64,000 nucleotides of DNA, taken from contig NZ_JAJCVJ010000004.1 in NCBI RefSeq assembly GCF_020567425.1, forward strand, positions 62,001-126,000. The letters run 5' to 3'. Origin of the DNA: Salinirubrum litoreum (GTDB lineage Archaea > Halobacteriota > Halobacteria > Halobacteriales > Haloferacaceae). Numbering within the stretch: the stretch's first letter is position 1; the number at the start of each line of letters is the position of its first letter. The position numbers and the translations under genes are program-made. Shown here one piece after another: positions 19,639-58,790 of the stretch. The notes under the pieces are model-generated. The model did not search any database. It saw only the letters and a list, made by a program, of their open reading frames with translations, and was not told the DNA's origin.

Positions 19639-19689
19639 AGCGTGTGGTGGGTCGGGAGTGACAAACCGATTCCGACCTGCACTGAGGTC

Positions 19690-19731
19690 GTGGTCTTGGT
19701 CTTGGTCTTGGTCTTGGTCTTGGTCTTGGTG
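19690..19731. repeat. TTGGTC hexanucleotide microsatellite upstream of the MATE gene
   Basis: Roughly seven perfect tandem copies of the hexamer lie about 52 bases upstream of the GTG at 19638. Such tracts change length by slippage; here that would alter promoter spacing of the exporter gene. Confidence 0.75.
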
Positions 19732-19799: not shown

Positions 19800-20112
19800 A
19801 CCGTAGACCGCATCCGCGACCACACCACAGACCGCAACCACGACAGCACCGGCACCGCAGACCGCGACCGCGACAGCAACAGTGACCGCGACTGCACCGC
19901 TACTCGATCCGGTGCAACCGGAATACTCGACCGCATCCGCGACAGCACAGCACCGCGACCGCAACTGCGACAGCACCGCGACCGCAACTGCGACAGCACC
20001 GCCACCGCACCGCCACCGCAGACAGCACCGCACCTCGTCCTCCCCAGCCTCGGCGGGGGTTCTCCGCACCGCCCACCCCCGCCTCCCTCGCGCGCGAGGA
20101 ACCGCGCGCGCC
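19800..20112 (-). ncRNA. Structured repeat element family 1, copy 1 (candidate non-coding RNA)
   Basis: Read on the minus strand: hairpin 1 (8 bp of CGCGCGCG, six-base loop; 20089-20110), linker AGGGA, hairpin 2 (9-bp stem at 20052-20060 and 20075-20083 with loop GGGCGGTGCGGAGA), then GAGGCTGGGGAGGA, then a tail of degenerate TGTCGCGGT-like repeats running to about 19800. Three other copies share loop, linker and flanks but have different, fully paired hairpin-2 stems. It lies in an 863-base gap between the MATE and lipoprotein genes; open frames here are low-complexity and not convincing. Confidence 0.6.
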
Positions 20113-20178
20113 GAAACTTGGCGAAACGCTCACGCCACGCTCGTCACCCAACCACTCGCCGACGACCGGGAATCCGGG

Positions 20179-20295
20179 CGGACGCGATCTGGTGACGACC
20201 GAGACCGGGCAGTGTCCGAGCGACAGCGAGTGACCTGCCCGCAGTTCGGTCGTCAGCAGTCGGGGAGGTGTGGGGAGCTACTGCGAGTGCCGGAT
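20179..20295 (+). ncRNA. Conserved element family 2, copy A (candidate non-coding RNA)
   Basis: About 115 bases align with the minus strand at 58453-58562. Shared blocks include CGGACGCGATCTG, GCAGTGTCCGAGCGAC, CAGCAGTCGGGGAGG and CTACTGCGAG. CGCAGT and ACTGCG in both copies can pair to close a stem, and GCAG/CTGC closes a second. It is divergent from family 1 copy 1, with about 65 bases between. After it, to 20501, I see only short AT-richer direct repeats (CACGACGTATTCGAC twice) and no gene. Confidence 0.5.
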
Positions 20296-20501
20296 TCCGA
20301 CCCGCGAGCGTCACGCTGGGTGACCACCAGTAGCGACACGATCGGTCGCACATCCGGGTGGGACTTTCACCTCTCGTTTCGCACGACGTATTCGACCAAG
20401 TTCTCCACGACAAATTAGACGACGCTCTCCACGACGTATTCGACAGAGTCGTCGCCAGCTCACCTCCCTGAAGCATCCCCGCAAGATCCGACGCAAAAGA
20501 C

Positions 20502-31982: not shown

Positions 31983-32230
31983 CGCGCGCGACTTCGACGC
32001 GCGCGAGGGAGGGTTCCGGGCGGTGCCGAGCGGAACCCGAGGTTGGGGAGGAGCGCGGTGCTGTCGTGGTTGCGGTCGCTGTGCAGTGCTGTCGCGGTCG
32101 CTGTGCAGTGCTGTCGCGGTCTGCGGTTCCGTGCGTACTCCCAGGTGCGGTCGCGGTGTGGTCGGTGTCGCGGTCTGCGGTCGCGGTGCCGTATCTGTCG
32201 CGGCCGCAGTCCTCGGTGTAGTAGCCATCA
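31983..32230 (+). ncRNA. Structured repeat element family 1, copy 2 (candidate non-coding RNA)
   Basis: Hairpin 1 pairs CGCGCGCG at 31983-31990 with 31998-32005; linker AGGGA; hairpin 2 pairs GGGTTCC (32011-32017) with GGAACCC (32032-32038) around the loop GGGCGGTGCCGAGC; GAGGTTGGGGAGGA follows, then a degenerate TGTCGCGGT-type tail to about 32230. It lies in the 473-base gap between the divergent NTF2-like and DUF5779-like genes. No other gene is seen in the gap. Confidence 0.6.
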
Positions 32231-47605: not shown

Positions 47606-47900
47606 CGCGCGCGAGCAACGTGCGCGAGGGAGGGCTTCGGGCGGTGTGGAGAGAAGCCCGAGGCTGGGGAGGACCGAGGTGTGGTGCCGTCTGCTGTTGC
47701 TGTCGCGGTGCGGTTGTGGTGGCGGATGTGGTCGCTGTCGCGGTGCGGTTGTGGTGGCGGATGTGGTCGCTGTCGCGGTGCGGTTGTGGTGGCGGATGTG
47801 GTCGCTGTCGCGGTGCCGTGCTGGTGCGGTCGTGGCAGAGGTGCGCTCGCAACAGTAGCTGTCGCAGTGTTGTCGTGGTCGCAGTATCTGTCGCAGTCAG
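47606..47900 (+). ncRNA. Structured repeat element family 1, copy 3 (candidate non-coding RNA)
   Basis: Hairpin 1 pairs CGCGCGCG (47606-47613) with CGTGCGCG (47619-47626, one G-T pair); linker AGGGA; hairpin 2 pairs GGGCTTC (47632-47638) with GAAGCCC (47653-47659) around GGGCGGTGTGGAGA; then GAGGCTGGGGAGGA and a GTCGCGGTG-rich tail containing a 35-base tandem repeat. It lies in the 480-base gap between the amidohydrolase start and the HD gene stop; I see no gene in the gap. Confidence 0.6.
47699..47820. repeat. 35-base tandem repeat in the tail of family 1 copy 3
   Basis: Units starting at 47699, 47734 and 47769 are identical over 35 bases (beginning GCTGTCGCGGTGCGG); a fourth, at 47804, is truncated. 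They grow out of the family's TGTCGCGGT-type tail, which suggests recent slippage expansion. Confidence 0.8.
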
Positions 47901-47950: not shown

Positions 47951-49174
47951 TCAGTTGAACTCGTCCAAGGTCGCGTGGACGCTGTGGCTGACGGTGCTGA
48001 CGAGTGCGCCGTCCACGTCCAGGCCGAGGGCGTCTGCGGCGACGTCGCCCACCCGGTCGGTCTCCTCCGGCGGGCAGTAGACGCCGAGTCGCCACTGGTT
48101 CTGCTGGGCGGTCCTGAGCGCACCGACGAGTGGCGACTGGTCTTCGAGTCGGCGGATCTCGCCGTTCACCATCACCCGCGAGGAGGACTCCGTCATCGAC
48201 GGCTTCGGCGGGACGTCCACGATCACGTCGTCCACGGCGAGACCGAGGTCGTCGGCGACGTCCTGTTCGACTGCCCTGATCTCGTCGTGGCTCATCTCGA
48301 AGACCTCGCTCGGCACGTCGCGTATCTCGGCCCAGACCGCGCGCTTGTAGAGGCTCCGGGTGCGCAGGCGATCGGCGAAGTCGCCGGTCGTCTCGGTCCG
48401 ACGGAGCGCGACGAGCAGTTCGTGGTCGTCCATCCGACGGAGTTGCTCTGCGCTGATGTCCGGGGCGTCGAGCAGTCGCTCGCTCGCCCGGCGGAGCATC
48501 GCCTTCGAGATGCGGGCGACGTGGTGCTGGTAGACGGTCGGGTTCATCAGCGCGCGAGCCAAGAGGAGGCTCTCGGCGGTCTGGACGTTCCCCTCGTCCA
48601 GGACGAGTTCGCCGTCCACGAAGACCAACTCGCGGACGAGGCGGCCGTGGTCGATAGTGCCGTAGGGGACGCCGGTGTGGTGGGCGTCCCGGACGAGGTA
48701 GTCCATCCGGTCCACGTCCAACTCGCCCGAGACGAGTTGGCCGTACTGGCCCTCGCCGGCCACGAGTCCGGCGACTCGCCTCGGATCGAGCCCGTGGTCG
48801 CGGAGCACGTCCCCGACCTCGCCCTGAGTGAGCAGTCCGCCCACGTCGTCGTGGTACTTGCCGGTGTGGCGGTGGGTGAGCGACTCGATGTTGTGGCTGT
48901 AGGGACCGTGGCCCACGTCGTGGAGGAGTGCGGCGGCCCGGACGCGTTCGGCCTCGGTCCCCTCGACGCCGAGGTGGCCGAGCGCCCGGTCCGCGAGGTG
49001 GTAGACGCCGAGTGAGTGCTCGAACCGAGTGTGGTTCGCAGAGGGGTAGACGAGTTGGACGGTCCCCAACTGCTTGACGTGGCGGAGGCGCTGGACGGCC
49101 GAGGTGTCGAGGAGTGCCTCGGCCACGCCCGCGACCTCGATGTGGTCGTGGACGCTGTCCTTGATCGTCGTCAT
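47951..49174 (-). CDS. HD-domain phosphohydrolase 1
   Basis: 407 residues. The HD motif is complete: VYPSANHTRFEHSLGVYHLADRAL (first His), AAALLHDVGHGPYSHN (HD), and DVDRMDYLVRDAHHTG (third Asp). The family includes dGTPase/SAMHD1-like dNTP triphosphohydrolases and other nucleotide phosphohydrolases. The C-terminus (VYCPPEETDRVGDVAADAL) is an accessory domain shared with its neighbour. ATG 49174. It is a tandem paralogue of the gene at 49278; both are on the minus strand and separated by 103 bases. Confidence 0.87.
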   Translation of the reverse strand: MTTIKDSVHDHIEVAGVAEALLDTSAVQRLRHVKQLGTVQLVYPSANHTRFEHSLGVYHLADRALGHLGVEGTEAERVRAAALLHDVGHGPYSHNIESLTHRHTGKYHDDVGGLLTQGEVGDVLRDHGLDPRRVAGLVAGEGQYGQLVSGELDVDRMDYLVRDAHHTGVPYGTIDHGRLVRELVFVDGELVLDEGNVQTAESLLLARALMNPTVYQHHVARISKAMLRRASERLLDAPDISAEQLRRMDDHELLVALRRTETTGDFADRLRTRSLYKRAVWAEIRDVPSEVFEMSHDEIRAVEQDVADDLGLAVDDVIVDVPPKPSMTESSSRVMVNGEIRRLEDQSPLVGALRTAQQNQWRLGVYCPPEETDRVGDVAADALGLDVDGALVSTVSHSVHATLDEFN

Positions 49175-49277
49175 ACGCCGACTTGCGCCTTCTGGGATAA
49201 AAACCGTCGCACACGCGCACCGGACGCCGTCGGCGGCCCACCGGGCGAGAGCCGCTCCGGCGGCGCGATCTGCTGGC

Positions 49278-50462
49278 TCACCCGGTCGGCCTCACGCGCT
49301 CGCCGGGCAGTTCCAGCAGGTCACAGGCCGCCTCGTGGACCGCTCCGGTCGCCTCGGCGGGACAGTAGACGCCGAGTCGCCACTGGGCACGCTCGCCGGC
49401 GCGCAGGGCGGAAACGAGTTCCGAGGCCGAGTCGAGGCGCACGACCTCGCCGCCGACCACGACGCGGGTGTTCGACTCCTTGATCCCCGGTCGGGTCGGG
49501 GCGTCCACGATGACCTCGTGTGACTGGAGGCCGGCGGCGTCGGCGATCTCGCGTTCGGCCTGCCGGGCGTCCTCGTGGCCGAGGTCGACGACCGCCGGTG
49601 GGACCGAATCGAGACCGGCCCACACCGCCCGCTTGTAGAGGTCCCTGCGTTCGATACGGGCACCGAGATCCGGGACGTACTCGCGCAGGGCGACCAGCAG
49701 GTCGTGGTCGGCCATCCGACGGAACTGTTGGATGTCGGTTTCGGCCGACTCGCTAGCCAGGAGTCGCTCGGCCGCGCGTTTGAGCATCGCGCCCGCGATG
49801 CGGGAGACGTGGTGGCGGTAGACGGTCGCGTTCATCAGTGCCCGCGCGAGGAGGAGGCTCTCGGCGGTCTGAACGTTCCCCTCCTCCAAGACGAGTGTCC
49901 CGTCGCGGTAGCGCAGTTCGCGGACGAGGCGGCCGTGGTCGATAGTGCCGTAGGGGACGCCGGTGTGGTGGGCGTCTCGGACGAGGTAGTCCATCCGGTC
50001 CACGTCCAGTTCCCCCGAGACGAGTTGCCCCAGTTCCCCCTCGCCGCGCACGATGCGGGCGACGCGGTCGGGGTCGAGGCCGTGGGCTTCGAGCACTGTC
50101 CCGGTCTCTGTCGCGTGGAGGAGGTCGCCGATCTCGTCGTGGTGGGTCCCGGTGTGGCGCATGATGACCTCCTCGGTCTGGTGGCCGTAGGGACCGTGCC
50201 CGATGTCGTGGAGGAGGGCGGCGGCCCGGACGTGTTCGGCCCGGTCGCCCGCGATGTCCATGTGATCGAGTGCTCGGCAGGCGAGGTGGTAGACGCCCAG
50301 CGAGTGCTCGAACCGAGTGTGGTTCGCGGAGGGGTAGACGAGGCGGACGGTCGAGAGCTGTTTGACGTGCCGGAGTCGCTGGACGGCGTGGGTGTCCAGC
50401 AGGTCCTGCGCGACCGGCCCGAGAGTCACGTAGTCGTGGACACTGTCCTTGATCGCGTTCAT
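49278..50462 (-). CDS. HD-domain phosphohydrolase 2 (tandem paralogue)
   Basis: 394 residues, colinear with the downstream HD gene over its full length (VQRLRHVKQLSTVRLVYPSANHTRFEHSLGVYHLACRAL, AALLHDIGHGPYGHQ, DVDRMDYLVRDAHHTG, WRLGVYCPAEATG). All HD residues are intact, so both copies may be active; the differences lie mainly in the middle helices and the C-terminal tail. A dNTPase-type activity is possible and unproven. ATG 50462. The 229-base spacer up to the GT-C gene is GC-rich and shows nothing gene-like. Confidence 0.87.
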   Translation of the reverse strand: MNAIKDSVHDYVTLGPVAQDLLDTHAVQRLRHVKQLSTVRLVYPSANHTRFEHSLGVYHLACRALDHMDIAGDRAEHVRAAALLHDIGHGPYGHQTEEVIMRHTGTHHDEIGDLLHATETGTVLEAHGLDPDRVARIVRGEGELGQLVSGELDVDRMDYLVRDAHHTGVPYGTIDHGRLVRELRYRDGTLVLEEGNVQTAESLLLARALMNATVYRHHVSRIAGAMLKRAAERLLASESAETDIQQFRRMADHDLLVALREYVPDLGARIERRDLYKRAVWAGLDSVPPAVVDLGHEDARQAEREIADAAGLQSHEVIVDAPTRPGIKESNTRVVVGGEVVRLDSASELVSALRAGERAQWRLGVYCPAEATGAVHEAACDLLELPGERVRPTG

Positions 50463-58562: not shown

Positions 58563-58601
58563 TCGAGGTCTCGGTCGTCGTCCCGTGTTCGGATGGCAGG
58601 T

Positions 58602-58659
58602 GTGGCGTGCGAGTTCACCGGAAGCGTGGCGTGCGAGTTCACCGGAAGCGTGGCGTGCG
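58602..58659. repeat. 24-base tandem repeat
   Basis: Units at 58602 and 58626 are identical over 24 bases (beginning GTGGCGTGCGAGTTCACC), and a partial third starts at 58650. The tract lies between the divergent family 2 copy B and family 1 copy 4. Confidence 0.8.
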
Positions 58660-58667
58660 TAACCCCG

Positions 58668-58790
58668 ACTCGCACGCGAGTGAACCGGATGCAGGTTGTG
58701 CGGAGTGCATCCGGCGAGGCGGCGGAGGGGCAGGTGCGGGTGCGGTCGCGATGCGAGTGCTGTCGCGGTCGCGAGCCGAGTTCCGGCGGA
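58668..58790 (+). ncRNA. Structured repeat element family 1, copy 4 (divergent)
   Basis: Hairpin 1 is ACTCGC-AC-GCGAGT (58668-58681); hairpin 2 pairs CCGGATGC (58685-58692) with GCATCCGG (58707-58714) around a 14-base loop AGGTTGTGCGGAGT, which matches the family loop at nine positions; CGAGGCGGCGGAGG follows, then TGTCGCGGT-type sequence. The stem sequence is unlike the other three copies but fully paired. Confidence 0.5.

What the first reader, a model, noticed from the sequence alone, without database searches (positions are those of the whole stretch)
20050..20300. Families 1 and 2 lie divergently side by side at two loci
At both 20.1 kb and 58.6 kb a family 1 copy and a family 2 copy point away from each other with a short spacer. 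The repeated pairing suggests a functional unit, e.g. two RNAs from one divergent promoter, or parts of one mobile non-coding unit.
Basis: partly seen in the sequence, partly recalled or inferred. Interest (0 to 1): 0.55.

Follow-up and report, generated by a model that had tools for sequence, protein, structure and literature searches.

The report
Haloarchaeal head-to-head hairpin repeat unit
Two hairpin-forming non-coding sequences that sit back to back at many places in this salt-loving archaeon's genome belong to one copied unit, related to hairpin elements scattered through many haloarchaea, whose job is still unknown.

Summary
At 20.1 kb and 58.6 kb of the window a family 1 (F1) and a family 2 (F2) copy point away from each other. 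In the whole genome, 102 F1 and 66 F2 matches (E<0.01) give 43 neighbour pairs, all 43 divergent (random placement: about 2.6 pairs). 34 of 43 gaps lie at 82-90 or 130-136 nt. Behind F2, usually 65-71 nt further out, stands a third hairpin domain (P3); P3 and F1 are divergent in 56 of 56 cases. So the unit is P3 <- F2 <- spacer -> F1 -> GC-rich tail.

F1, F2 and P3 are hairpins with covarying stems. F2 had no strong match in any other genome searched. F1-like and P3 hairpins occur in many haloarchaea: the P3 motif is in 151 of 293 genomes. No Rfam family matched.

Best reading: an interspersed, non-coding repeat copied as one piece. The 'mobile unit' half fits the copying, but I saw no clean ends and did not test for target duplications or a transposase. 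The function is unknown; transcription could not be tested.

The parts
20023..20091 (-). F1 core: GAGGGAG + variable stem + loop GGGCGGTGCGGAGA (20061-20074) + stem' + CGAGGCTGGGGAGGACGAGGTGCGG
   Evidence: R1 match 90.7 bits; loop
20090..20111 (-). GC-rich hairpin just upstream of the F1 core
   Evidence: read; a GC-rich hairpin stands there in most copies
19806..20022 (-). F1 tail: GC-rich degenerate hexamer repeats with small hairpins; not coding
   Evidence: period-6 array 19806-20031; three frames about equally open in 34 tails
20092..20177 (.). 86-nt spacer between the two cores, short class, no TATA-like box
   Evidence: row L001
20178..20292 (+). F2 core: long two-helix hairpin followed by GTCGGGGAGGTGTGGGGA
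   Evidence: R2 match 121 bits; fold z -4.0
20356..20371 (+). remnant of the third domain P3 (GGGTGGGACTTTCACC): both outer edges kept, hairpin gone
   Evidence: read, compared with intact P3
58451..58562 (-). F2 core, second copy
   Evidence: R2 match 112.7 bits at C4:120451-120562; fold z -2.2
58563..58675 (.). 113-nt spacer with a 24-nt tandem duplication (58602-58659), no TATA-like box
   Evidence: row L015
58676..58744 (+). F1 core, degenerate copy; 9-bp stem CCGGATGCA/TGCATCCGG kept
   Evidence: 52.6 bits; stem read
32003..32068 (+). F1 core without F2 or P3 nearby
   Evidence: 56.3 bits; listed as orphan
47624..47689 (+). F1 core without F2 or P3 nearby; its tail runs into a 35-nt tandem array (47699-47816)
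   Evidence: 70.7 bits

Best explanation
The F1/F2 pair is the middle of one composite, non-coding interspersed unit, P3 <- F2 <- spacer -> F1 -> tail, some 500-700 nt long (estimate). It is a lineage-specific, head-to-head form of hairpin elements found across many haloarchaea (shown: related modules elsewhere). It was copied as one piece to dozens of intergenic sites (inferred from the fixed order, orientation and spacing, with F2 found only in this lineage) and now persists as old copies under constraint to keep the hairpins (inferred from covariation). Copying probably needed a factor supplied in trans, with the hairpins as its recognition sites in single-stranded DNA or RNA (inferred, not shown). 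Long-spacer copies keep TATA-like boxes that could start two outward structured RNAs; most copies lack them and are probably silent or read through (inferred).
For: 43 of 43 F1/F2 pairs divergent. 56 of 56 P3/F1 neighbours divergent and 33 of 33 F2/P3 in tandem, 31 of the 33 at 65-71 nt (P3 motif with 0 or 1 mismatch). F2 strong matches only in the own genome, among 148 family genomes and 195 order genomes. The 45 best pairwise alignments of own loci span 331-722 nt at 71-87% identity. F1 stem, in a sample reached through F2 neighbours and the window: 97.7% of cells paired, 46 cells with a change on both sides against 9.6 in shuffles. F2, in a sample reached through F1: 93.1% paired, 17 such cells against 5.1. 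P3 in other genera: 71 of 88 motifs have a 3' partner, 49 of 71 form all 8 outer pairs, 41 distinct arms (best of three registers taken). TATA-like boxes in 7 of 8 long spacers against 0 of 19 others. Downstream of ilvA in genus g14 the element is present in 24 of 30 species by rule, but directly downstream in only 1 of 26 ilvA loci from 26 genera, the g14 one (exact motifs), so a site was gained and then kept.
Against: No sharp shared ends were seen, and the F1 tail grades into low-complexity sequence. Target-site duplications and a transposase or other trans factor were not searched for. The genus has one genome, so no empty-site comparison was possible for the window copies. 23 of 66 F2 have no F1 within 600 nt, 33 of 102 F1 have neither F2 nor P3 near, 24 of 83 P3 have neither F1 nor F2 near. 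Long retention at the ilvA site also fits a useful RNA gene. In other genera the modules also occur in tandem order or converging, so the divergent order is a feature of this genome rather than of the family.
Confidence: 0.58

Rival explanations
1. A multicopy family of functional structured non-coding RNAs. F1 and F2-P3 are two RNAs made from one bidirectional promoter and bind a common protein or act in trans through their G-rich single-stranded boxes (GGGGAGG).
For: Covarying helices in all three domains. The box GGGGAGG follows the hairpin in F1, F2 and F1-like elements of other genera. TATA-like boxes in 7 of 8 long spacers. At the ilvA site of genus g14 a TATA-like box precedes the element in 20 of 24 species, and the element is kept in 24 of 30.
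Against: 0 of 19 spacers shorter than 129 nt have a TATA-like box, and only 3 of 10 g14 loci outside or including that site, taken, have one just upstream. The F1 stem changes in blocks: no one-sided (G-U) change against 46 two-sided ones, unlike F2 with 12 against 17, which suggests cassette exchange or hairpin-templated copying rather than stepwise RNA evolution. No RNA data.
Confidence: 0.27
2. DNA-level sites: hairpins and G-rich boxes act as genome-organising or recombination sites between genes, comparable to REP/BIME repeats.
For: Intergenic, paired head to head, with block exchange of hairpins. The side upstream of F1 (the F2/P3 side where present) faces a gene's 3' end in 32 of 44 scored cases (p 0.004); the F1 side shows no preference, 21 of 41 (simple ORF caller, 55 own loci). 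At the ilvA site the gene beyond the element differs between species (read by eye).
Against: F2 and P3 show some G-U changes, as expected of RNA. The gene-side bias is modest and rests on crude gene calls.
Confidence: 0.12
3. Chance neighbours or a low-complexity artefact of a GC-rich genome.
For: The F1 tail is low-complexity, and single F1 sequences fold no better than shuffles (z -0.1 to -0.75).
Against: 43 of 43 orientation, clustered gaps, random placement mean 2.6 and maximum 10, reversed-pattern control 0.
Confidence: 0.01

Closest known systems
BIME / REP repeats of enterobacteria and pseudomonads (recalled; of PMC3686654 only the listing and the start of its abstract were seen)
   Same: Dispersed intergenic hairpins, often as inverted pairs with a linker, mosaic internal exchange, many copies.
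   Different: Modules here are larger (70-115 nt, plus a P3 hairpin of about 130-300 nt). Loop and G-rich box are more constant than the F1 stem. In this genome the order is divergent in every pair. A link to a RAYT transposase was not tested.
BOX, RUP and related modular repeats of Streptococcus pneumoniae (of PMC3049150 only the listing and the start of its abstract were seen; the rest recalled)
   Same: Modular non-coding intergenic repeats made of fixed sub-units.
   Different: Different sequence, host domain and architecture; no bidirectional TATA core or P3 is known to me in BOX.
MITEs and palindrome-associated elements of haloarchaea (PATEs; recalled)
   Same: Short, non-coding, multicopy, lineage-amplified.
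   Different: No terminal inverted repeats or clean ends were seen here; copies are old and structured throughout.
Multicopy structured non-coding RNAs such as HEARO/omega RNAs (recalled; of PMC12558985 only listings and the start of its abstract were seen)
   Same: Large structured elements in many copies per genome.
   Different: No Rfam match; association with tnpB or iscB was not tested; in this genome the basic form is a divergent pair.

Membership tests
MITE (non-autonomous DNA transposon) | short, non-coding, many dispersed copies | tested here: met
MITE (non-autonomous DNA transposon) | sharp ends with terminal inverted repeats | tested here: inconclusive
   pairwise alignments end at varying points; no shared termini seen by eye; no dedicated end search was made
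MITE (non-autonomous DNA transposon) | target-site duplication | not tested
   no close relative with an empty site for the own copies; not searched at the g14 site
MITE (non-autonomous DNA transposon) | related autonomous transposase | not tested
BIME / REP | hairpins in inverted pairs in intergenic DNA | tested here: met
BIME / REP | short hairpin with conserved stem and 5' GTAG-type tetranucleotide, linked to a RAYT transposase (recalled definition) | not tested
   the F1 stem is variable; the tetranucleotide and RAYT were not looked for
Rfam RNA families | match at or above the family's gathering score | tested here: not met
   0 matches in the window; in 5 loci the only match above a gathering score is a tRNA in L059 outside the unit
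Divergent RNA gene pair | promoter elements facing both ways in the spacer | tested here: inconclusive
   TATA-like box in 7 of 8 long spacers (two boxes in 4 of these 7), 0 of 19 shorter
Divergent RNA gene pair | transcripts from both arms | not testable with these tools
   no RNA data

The most novel reading that the evidence does not exclude
F1, F2 and P3 are domains of an undescribed class of large structured haloarchaeal RNA, made as divergent twins from a two-TATA core in full-length copies of this lineage, with a recurring loop (GGGCGGTGCGGAGA) and a shared G-rich box as protein- or ribosome-binding sites; P3 at least is present in about half of the haloarchaeal genomes sampled, and the hairpins are exchanged as cassettes between copies.
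Probability: 0.25. Interest if true: 0.82.

Novelty: new variant of a known kind. Interest (0 to 1): 0.58.

Why it matters
It describes a hairpin element family spread over many haloarchaea that I found neither in Rfam nor in the papers searched, and gives a precise architecture to test. The exceptionless divergent order in this genome, the two spacer classes with and without TATA-like boxes, and the block-wise change of the F1 stem make two questions testable: whether archaea have a REP/BIME-like system with its own trans factor, and whether the long-spacer copies make paired structured RNAs.

Tried and rejected
Coding tail: the F1 tail is open in long frames only because of its composition; the three frames are about equally open (medians 59, 62 and 42 codons in 34 tails).

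Rfam: nothing above gathering scores apart from a tRNA; two sub-threshold CRISPR-DR20 matches in L024 (31.4 and 22.8 bits, gathering 42) were taken as chance.

F2 elsewhere: four weak family matches (E 1e-4 to 9e-4). I read two of them (L062 beside tRNA-like sequence, L063 in a repeat-rich stretch); both share little beyond the word CCGAGCGACAGCGAGG. The other two were not read. Multi-genome searches scored only 19-34 candidates per genome with strict filters, so weak copies may be missed.

Viral carriage: the P3 motif is in only 5 stretches of the viral contig collection, not followed. Plasmids: 15 records with partial matches to the g14 element, none covering 80%.

Positional conservation of the element beside ilvA across genera: not found. 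Of 26 ilvA loci only the g14 one has it directly downstream; own genome has P3 and F1 about 1.0 and 1.2 kb downstream and a P3 0.5 kb upstream, and L230 has a P3 0.8 kb upstream (exact motifs only, so diverged copies would be missed).

Literature: nine searches listed no paper whose title or shown abstract describes the element; passages of PMC10927574 and PMC7002113 were read. Most subscription papers are not in that library, so this is weak evidence of novelty.

Biases. A1 and A3 were drawn by a pattern that fixes the F1 loop and 3' box (30 of 32 rows of A1, all of A3), so their conservation there is by construction. The samples were reached through the other family, but the alignments are fitted to the models, and some rows were also in the training sets (at least 4 of 22 distinct rows for F1, 5 of 14 for F2). 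Of the 22 distinct F1 rows, 7 carry the 14-nt loop or a one-base variant in a stem of 7-9 bp and two more have it with the stem broken by a mismatch; the others have other loops (TCTCGT, TTTA, TTCA, GTTCAG and so on), enlarged loops or were not parsed. Only 27 of 43 spacers were read, and P3 places with 2 mismatches were dropped before the counts.

Full report
WHAT WAS REPORTED AND WHETHER IT IS THERE. Both are there. The F2 core word has 2 matches in the window against 0.01 expected. With covariance models R1 (F1) and R2 (F2), the window holds four F1 copies and two F2 copies. The two F2 copies each have a divergent F1 neighbour, with gaps of 86 and 113 nt.

GENOME-WIDE TEST. The window lies in a 4.06-Mb genome of five contigs. 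R1 gives 102 matches with E<0.01 of 107 listed, and R2 gives 66 of 71 (only 150 first-look candidates were scored in each, so these may be lower bounds). An F1 lies within 600 nt of 43 of 66 F2; all 43 pairs are divergent, none convergent or tandem. Random placement of F1 on the same contigs gave a mean of 2.6 and at most 10 in 2000 trials. Of the 43 gaps, 23 lie at 82-90 and 11 at 130-136 nt; the other nine range from 61 to 234.

THE THIRD DOMAIN. Behind F2, and behind many F1 without F2, stands GTGGGACTGAAAGGGGC, the start of a long hairpin (P3) that closes with GGGGCTTTC (26 of 31 own P3 scanned had such a 3' partner within 330 nt, some of them collapsed to 28-42 nt). Of 83 P3 places with 0 or 1 mismatch, 33 follow an F2 in the same direction, 31 of these at 65-71 nt (the others 36 and 120), and 56 have an F1 within 900 nt, all 56 divergent; 24 have neither. 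Thus 69 of 102 F1 are in a divergent pair with F2 and/or P3, and 33 are alone by these cut-offs. At 20.1 kb P3 is reduced to its edges (GGGTGGGACTTTCACC, read); at 58.5 kb I saw none.

STRUCTURE. F1, in a sample reached through F2 neighbours and the window: 97.7% of stem cells pair, 46 cells changed on both sides against 9.6 in shuffles, covariation 0.585 against at most 0.072 when slid. No cell there changed on one side only, that is, no G-U pair. F2, in a sample reached through F1: 93.1% paired, 17 two-sided and 12 one-sided changes. The difference (Fisher p 2e-6, counting cells as independent, which they are not) suggests that the F1 hairpin is swapped as a block. Both alignments are fitted to the models, and some rows were in the training sets. 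In one search, 31 exact-pattern copies share 20 distinct 3' arms, 8 of them used two or three times. P3 in other genera: 71 of 88 motifs have a 3' partner, 49 of 71 form all eight outer pairs, 41 distinct arms, 16 G-U and 31 mismatched of 568 cells (best of three registers). Single-sequence folding alone is weak evidence: F1 copies fold no better than shuffles, F2 copies do (z -4.0 and -2.2). On the pattern-drawn alignment A1 the automatic consensus fold recovers the F1 stem only in part.

SHARED WORDS. The loop GGGCGGTGCGGAGA of many F1 copies also caps the P3 hairpin, exactly or with small changes, in several other haloarchaea (for example L177, L153, L171). It is not universal: in the F2-reached sample 9 of 22 F1 rows show it or a one-base variant. 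The box GGGGAGG follows the hairpin in F1, F2 and F1-like elements of other genera (there it was part of the search word). This hints that F2 is a diverged F1-type module, but the shared stretch is too short to prove descent.

PROMOTERS. Of 43 spacers, 27 were read. Seven of eight spacers of 129-135 nt have TATA-like boxes, two boxes in four of the seven: TTTTTATA towards F2 and TTATAA towards F1. None of 19 shorter ones has any (Fisher p 9e-6). By eye the short class looks like the long class with the box stretch missing. So a bidirectional promoter is plausible for the long class only.

DISTRIBUTION. F2: strong matches in the own genome only, of 148 family genomes (four weak matches set aside) and of 195 order genomes (partly the same genomes). 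The own genus has no other genome. F1: 78 of 148 family genomes at E<=0.01, but many of these are single weak matches; the strong, many-copy ones are in the own genome, genus g14 and a few others (at most 34 candidates scored per genome). Genus g14 is probably Halorubrum; this is inferred from its size and from a partial match on a Halorubrum salinarum plasmid, not named by any search. An exact F1 pattern hit one record of the named genome collection, a Haloferacaceae MAG (L110). The P3 motif: 151 of 293 order genomes, up to 98 copies, 61 in the own genome, reversed control 0. In g14, F1 and P3 lie in one direction, unlike the own genome. In other genera, of 88 P3 motifs in 80 loci, 20 have the F1 box upstream on the same strand, 2 on the opposite strand (L117, L119), 6 belong to P3 pairs pointing apart (L143, L146, L189), and 60 have none of these. 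P3 motifs within 1 kb of each other: 5 pairs divergent (two of them, L114 and L136, whole units head to head), 1 convergent (L128), 1 tandem (L154). The loci were not drawn at random.

GAIN AND KEEPING OF A SITE. Downstream of ilvA (PALP and ACT domains; named on plasmid records), 24 of 30 g14 species carry the element by rule, 20 of the 24 with a TATA-like box in front. Of the other six, L209 is cut by a contig end and L214 looks like a remnant by eye. The 30 were the best-scoring of 52 genomes searched. Directly downstream of ilvA in 26 genera it is present in 1 of 26, the g14 one (exact motifs). So the site was probably gained in that lineage and kept.

NEIGHBOURHOOD. In 55 own loci, the side upstream of F1 (F2/P3 side where present) faces a gene's 3' end in 32 of 44 scored and the F1 side in 21 of 41 (p 0.004 and 1.0; crude ORF calls). 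In the window the 20.1-kb unit lies between a MatE gene start and the end of a DUF7537 gene, the 58.6-kb pair between an RGP-domain gene and a rhomboid-domain gene.

VERDICT. Shown: a composite unit with fixed order and orientation and clustered spacing, base-pairing kept by covariation, F2 confined to this genome among those searched, related modules across many haloarchaea. Inferred: spread as one piece, a trans factor, transcription of long-spacer copies. Not tested: RNA, target duplications, transposase link.

Noticed in passing
L177, L158, L171, L172, L174, L019 downstream of P3: Tandem repeats of about 53-57 nt made of the P3 3' arm plus about 30 nt follow the P3 hairpin in several genomes, including the own one (L019).
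   Followed up: partly
L177, L171, L172, L174, L160 upstream of P3: Iteron-like direct repeats of about 26-27 nt (around CGGTGACACAGTCCACCG) stand just upstream of P3 in genomes G214 and G185 (read by eye).
   Followed up: no
window 48471-50417: Two neighbouring 300-nt stretches (48471-48770, 48830-49129) are each repeated 1288 nt further on at 83% and 77% identity: probably a tandem duplication of the HD-domain gene at 47951-49174.
   Followed up: no
window 19686-19730: GGTCTT hexamer repeated 7.5 times at 97% near the start of the MatE gene.
   Followed up: no
C1:1296144-1296260, C1:1402218-1402336, C2:1334116-1334231, C2:1298170-1298281, C2:595380-595492: F1 copies about 40-55 nt longer than usual, as if an extra hairpin had been inserted in the hairpin slot (L010 and L030).
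   Followed up: partly
L191-L220 downstream of ilvA: The gene beyond the element differs between g14 species while ilvA stays, as if the element marked a rearrangement point (read by eye).
   Followed up: no
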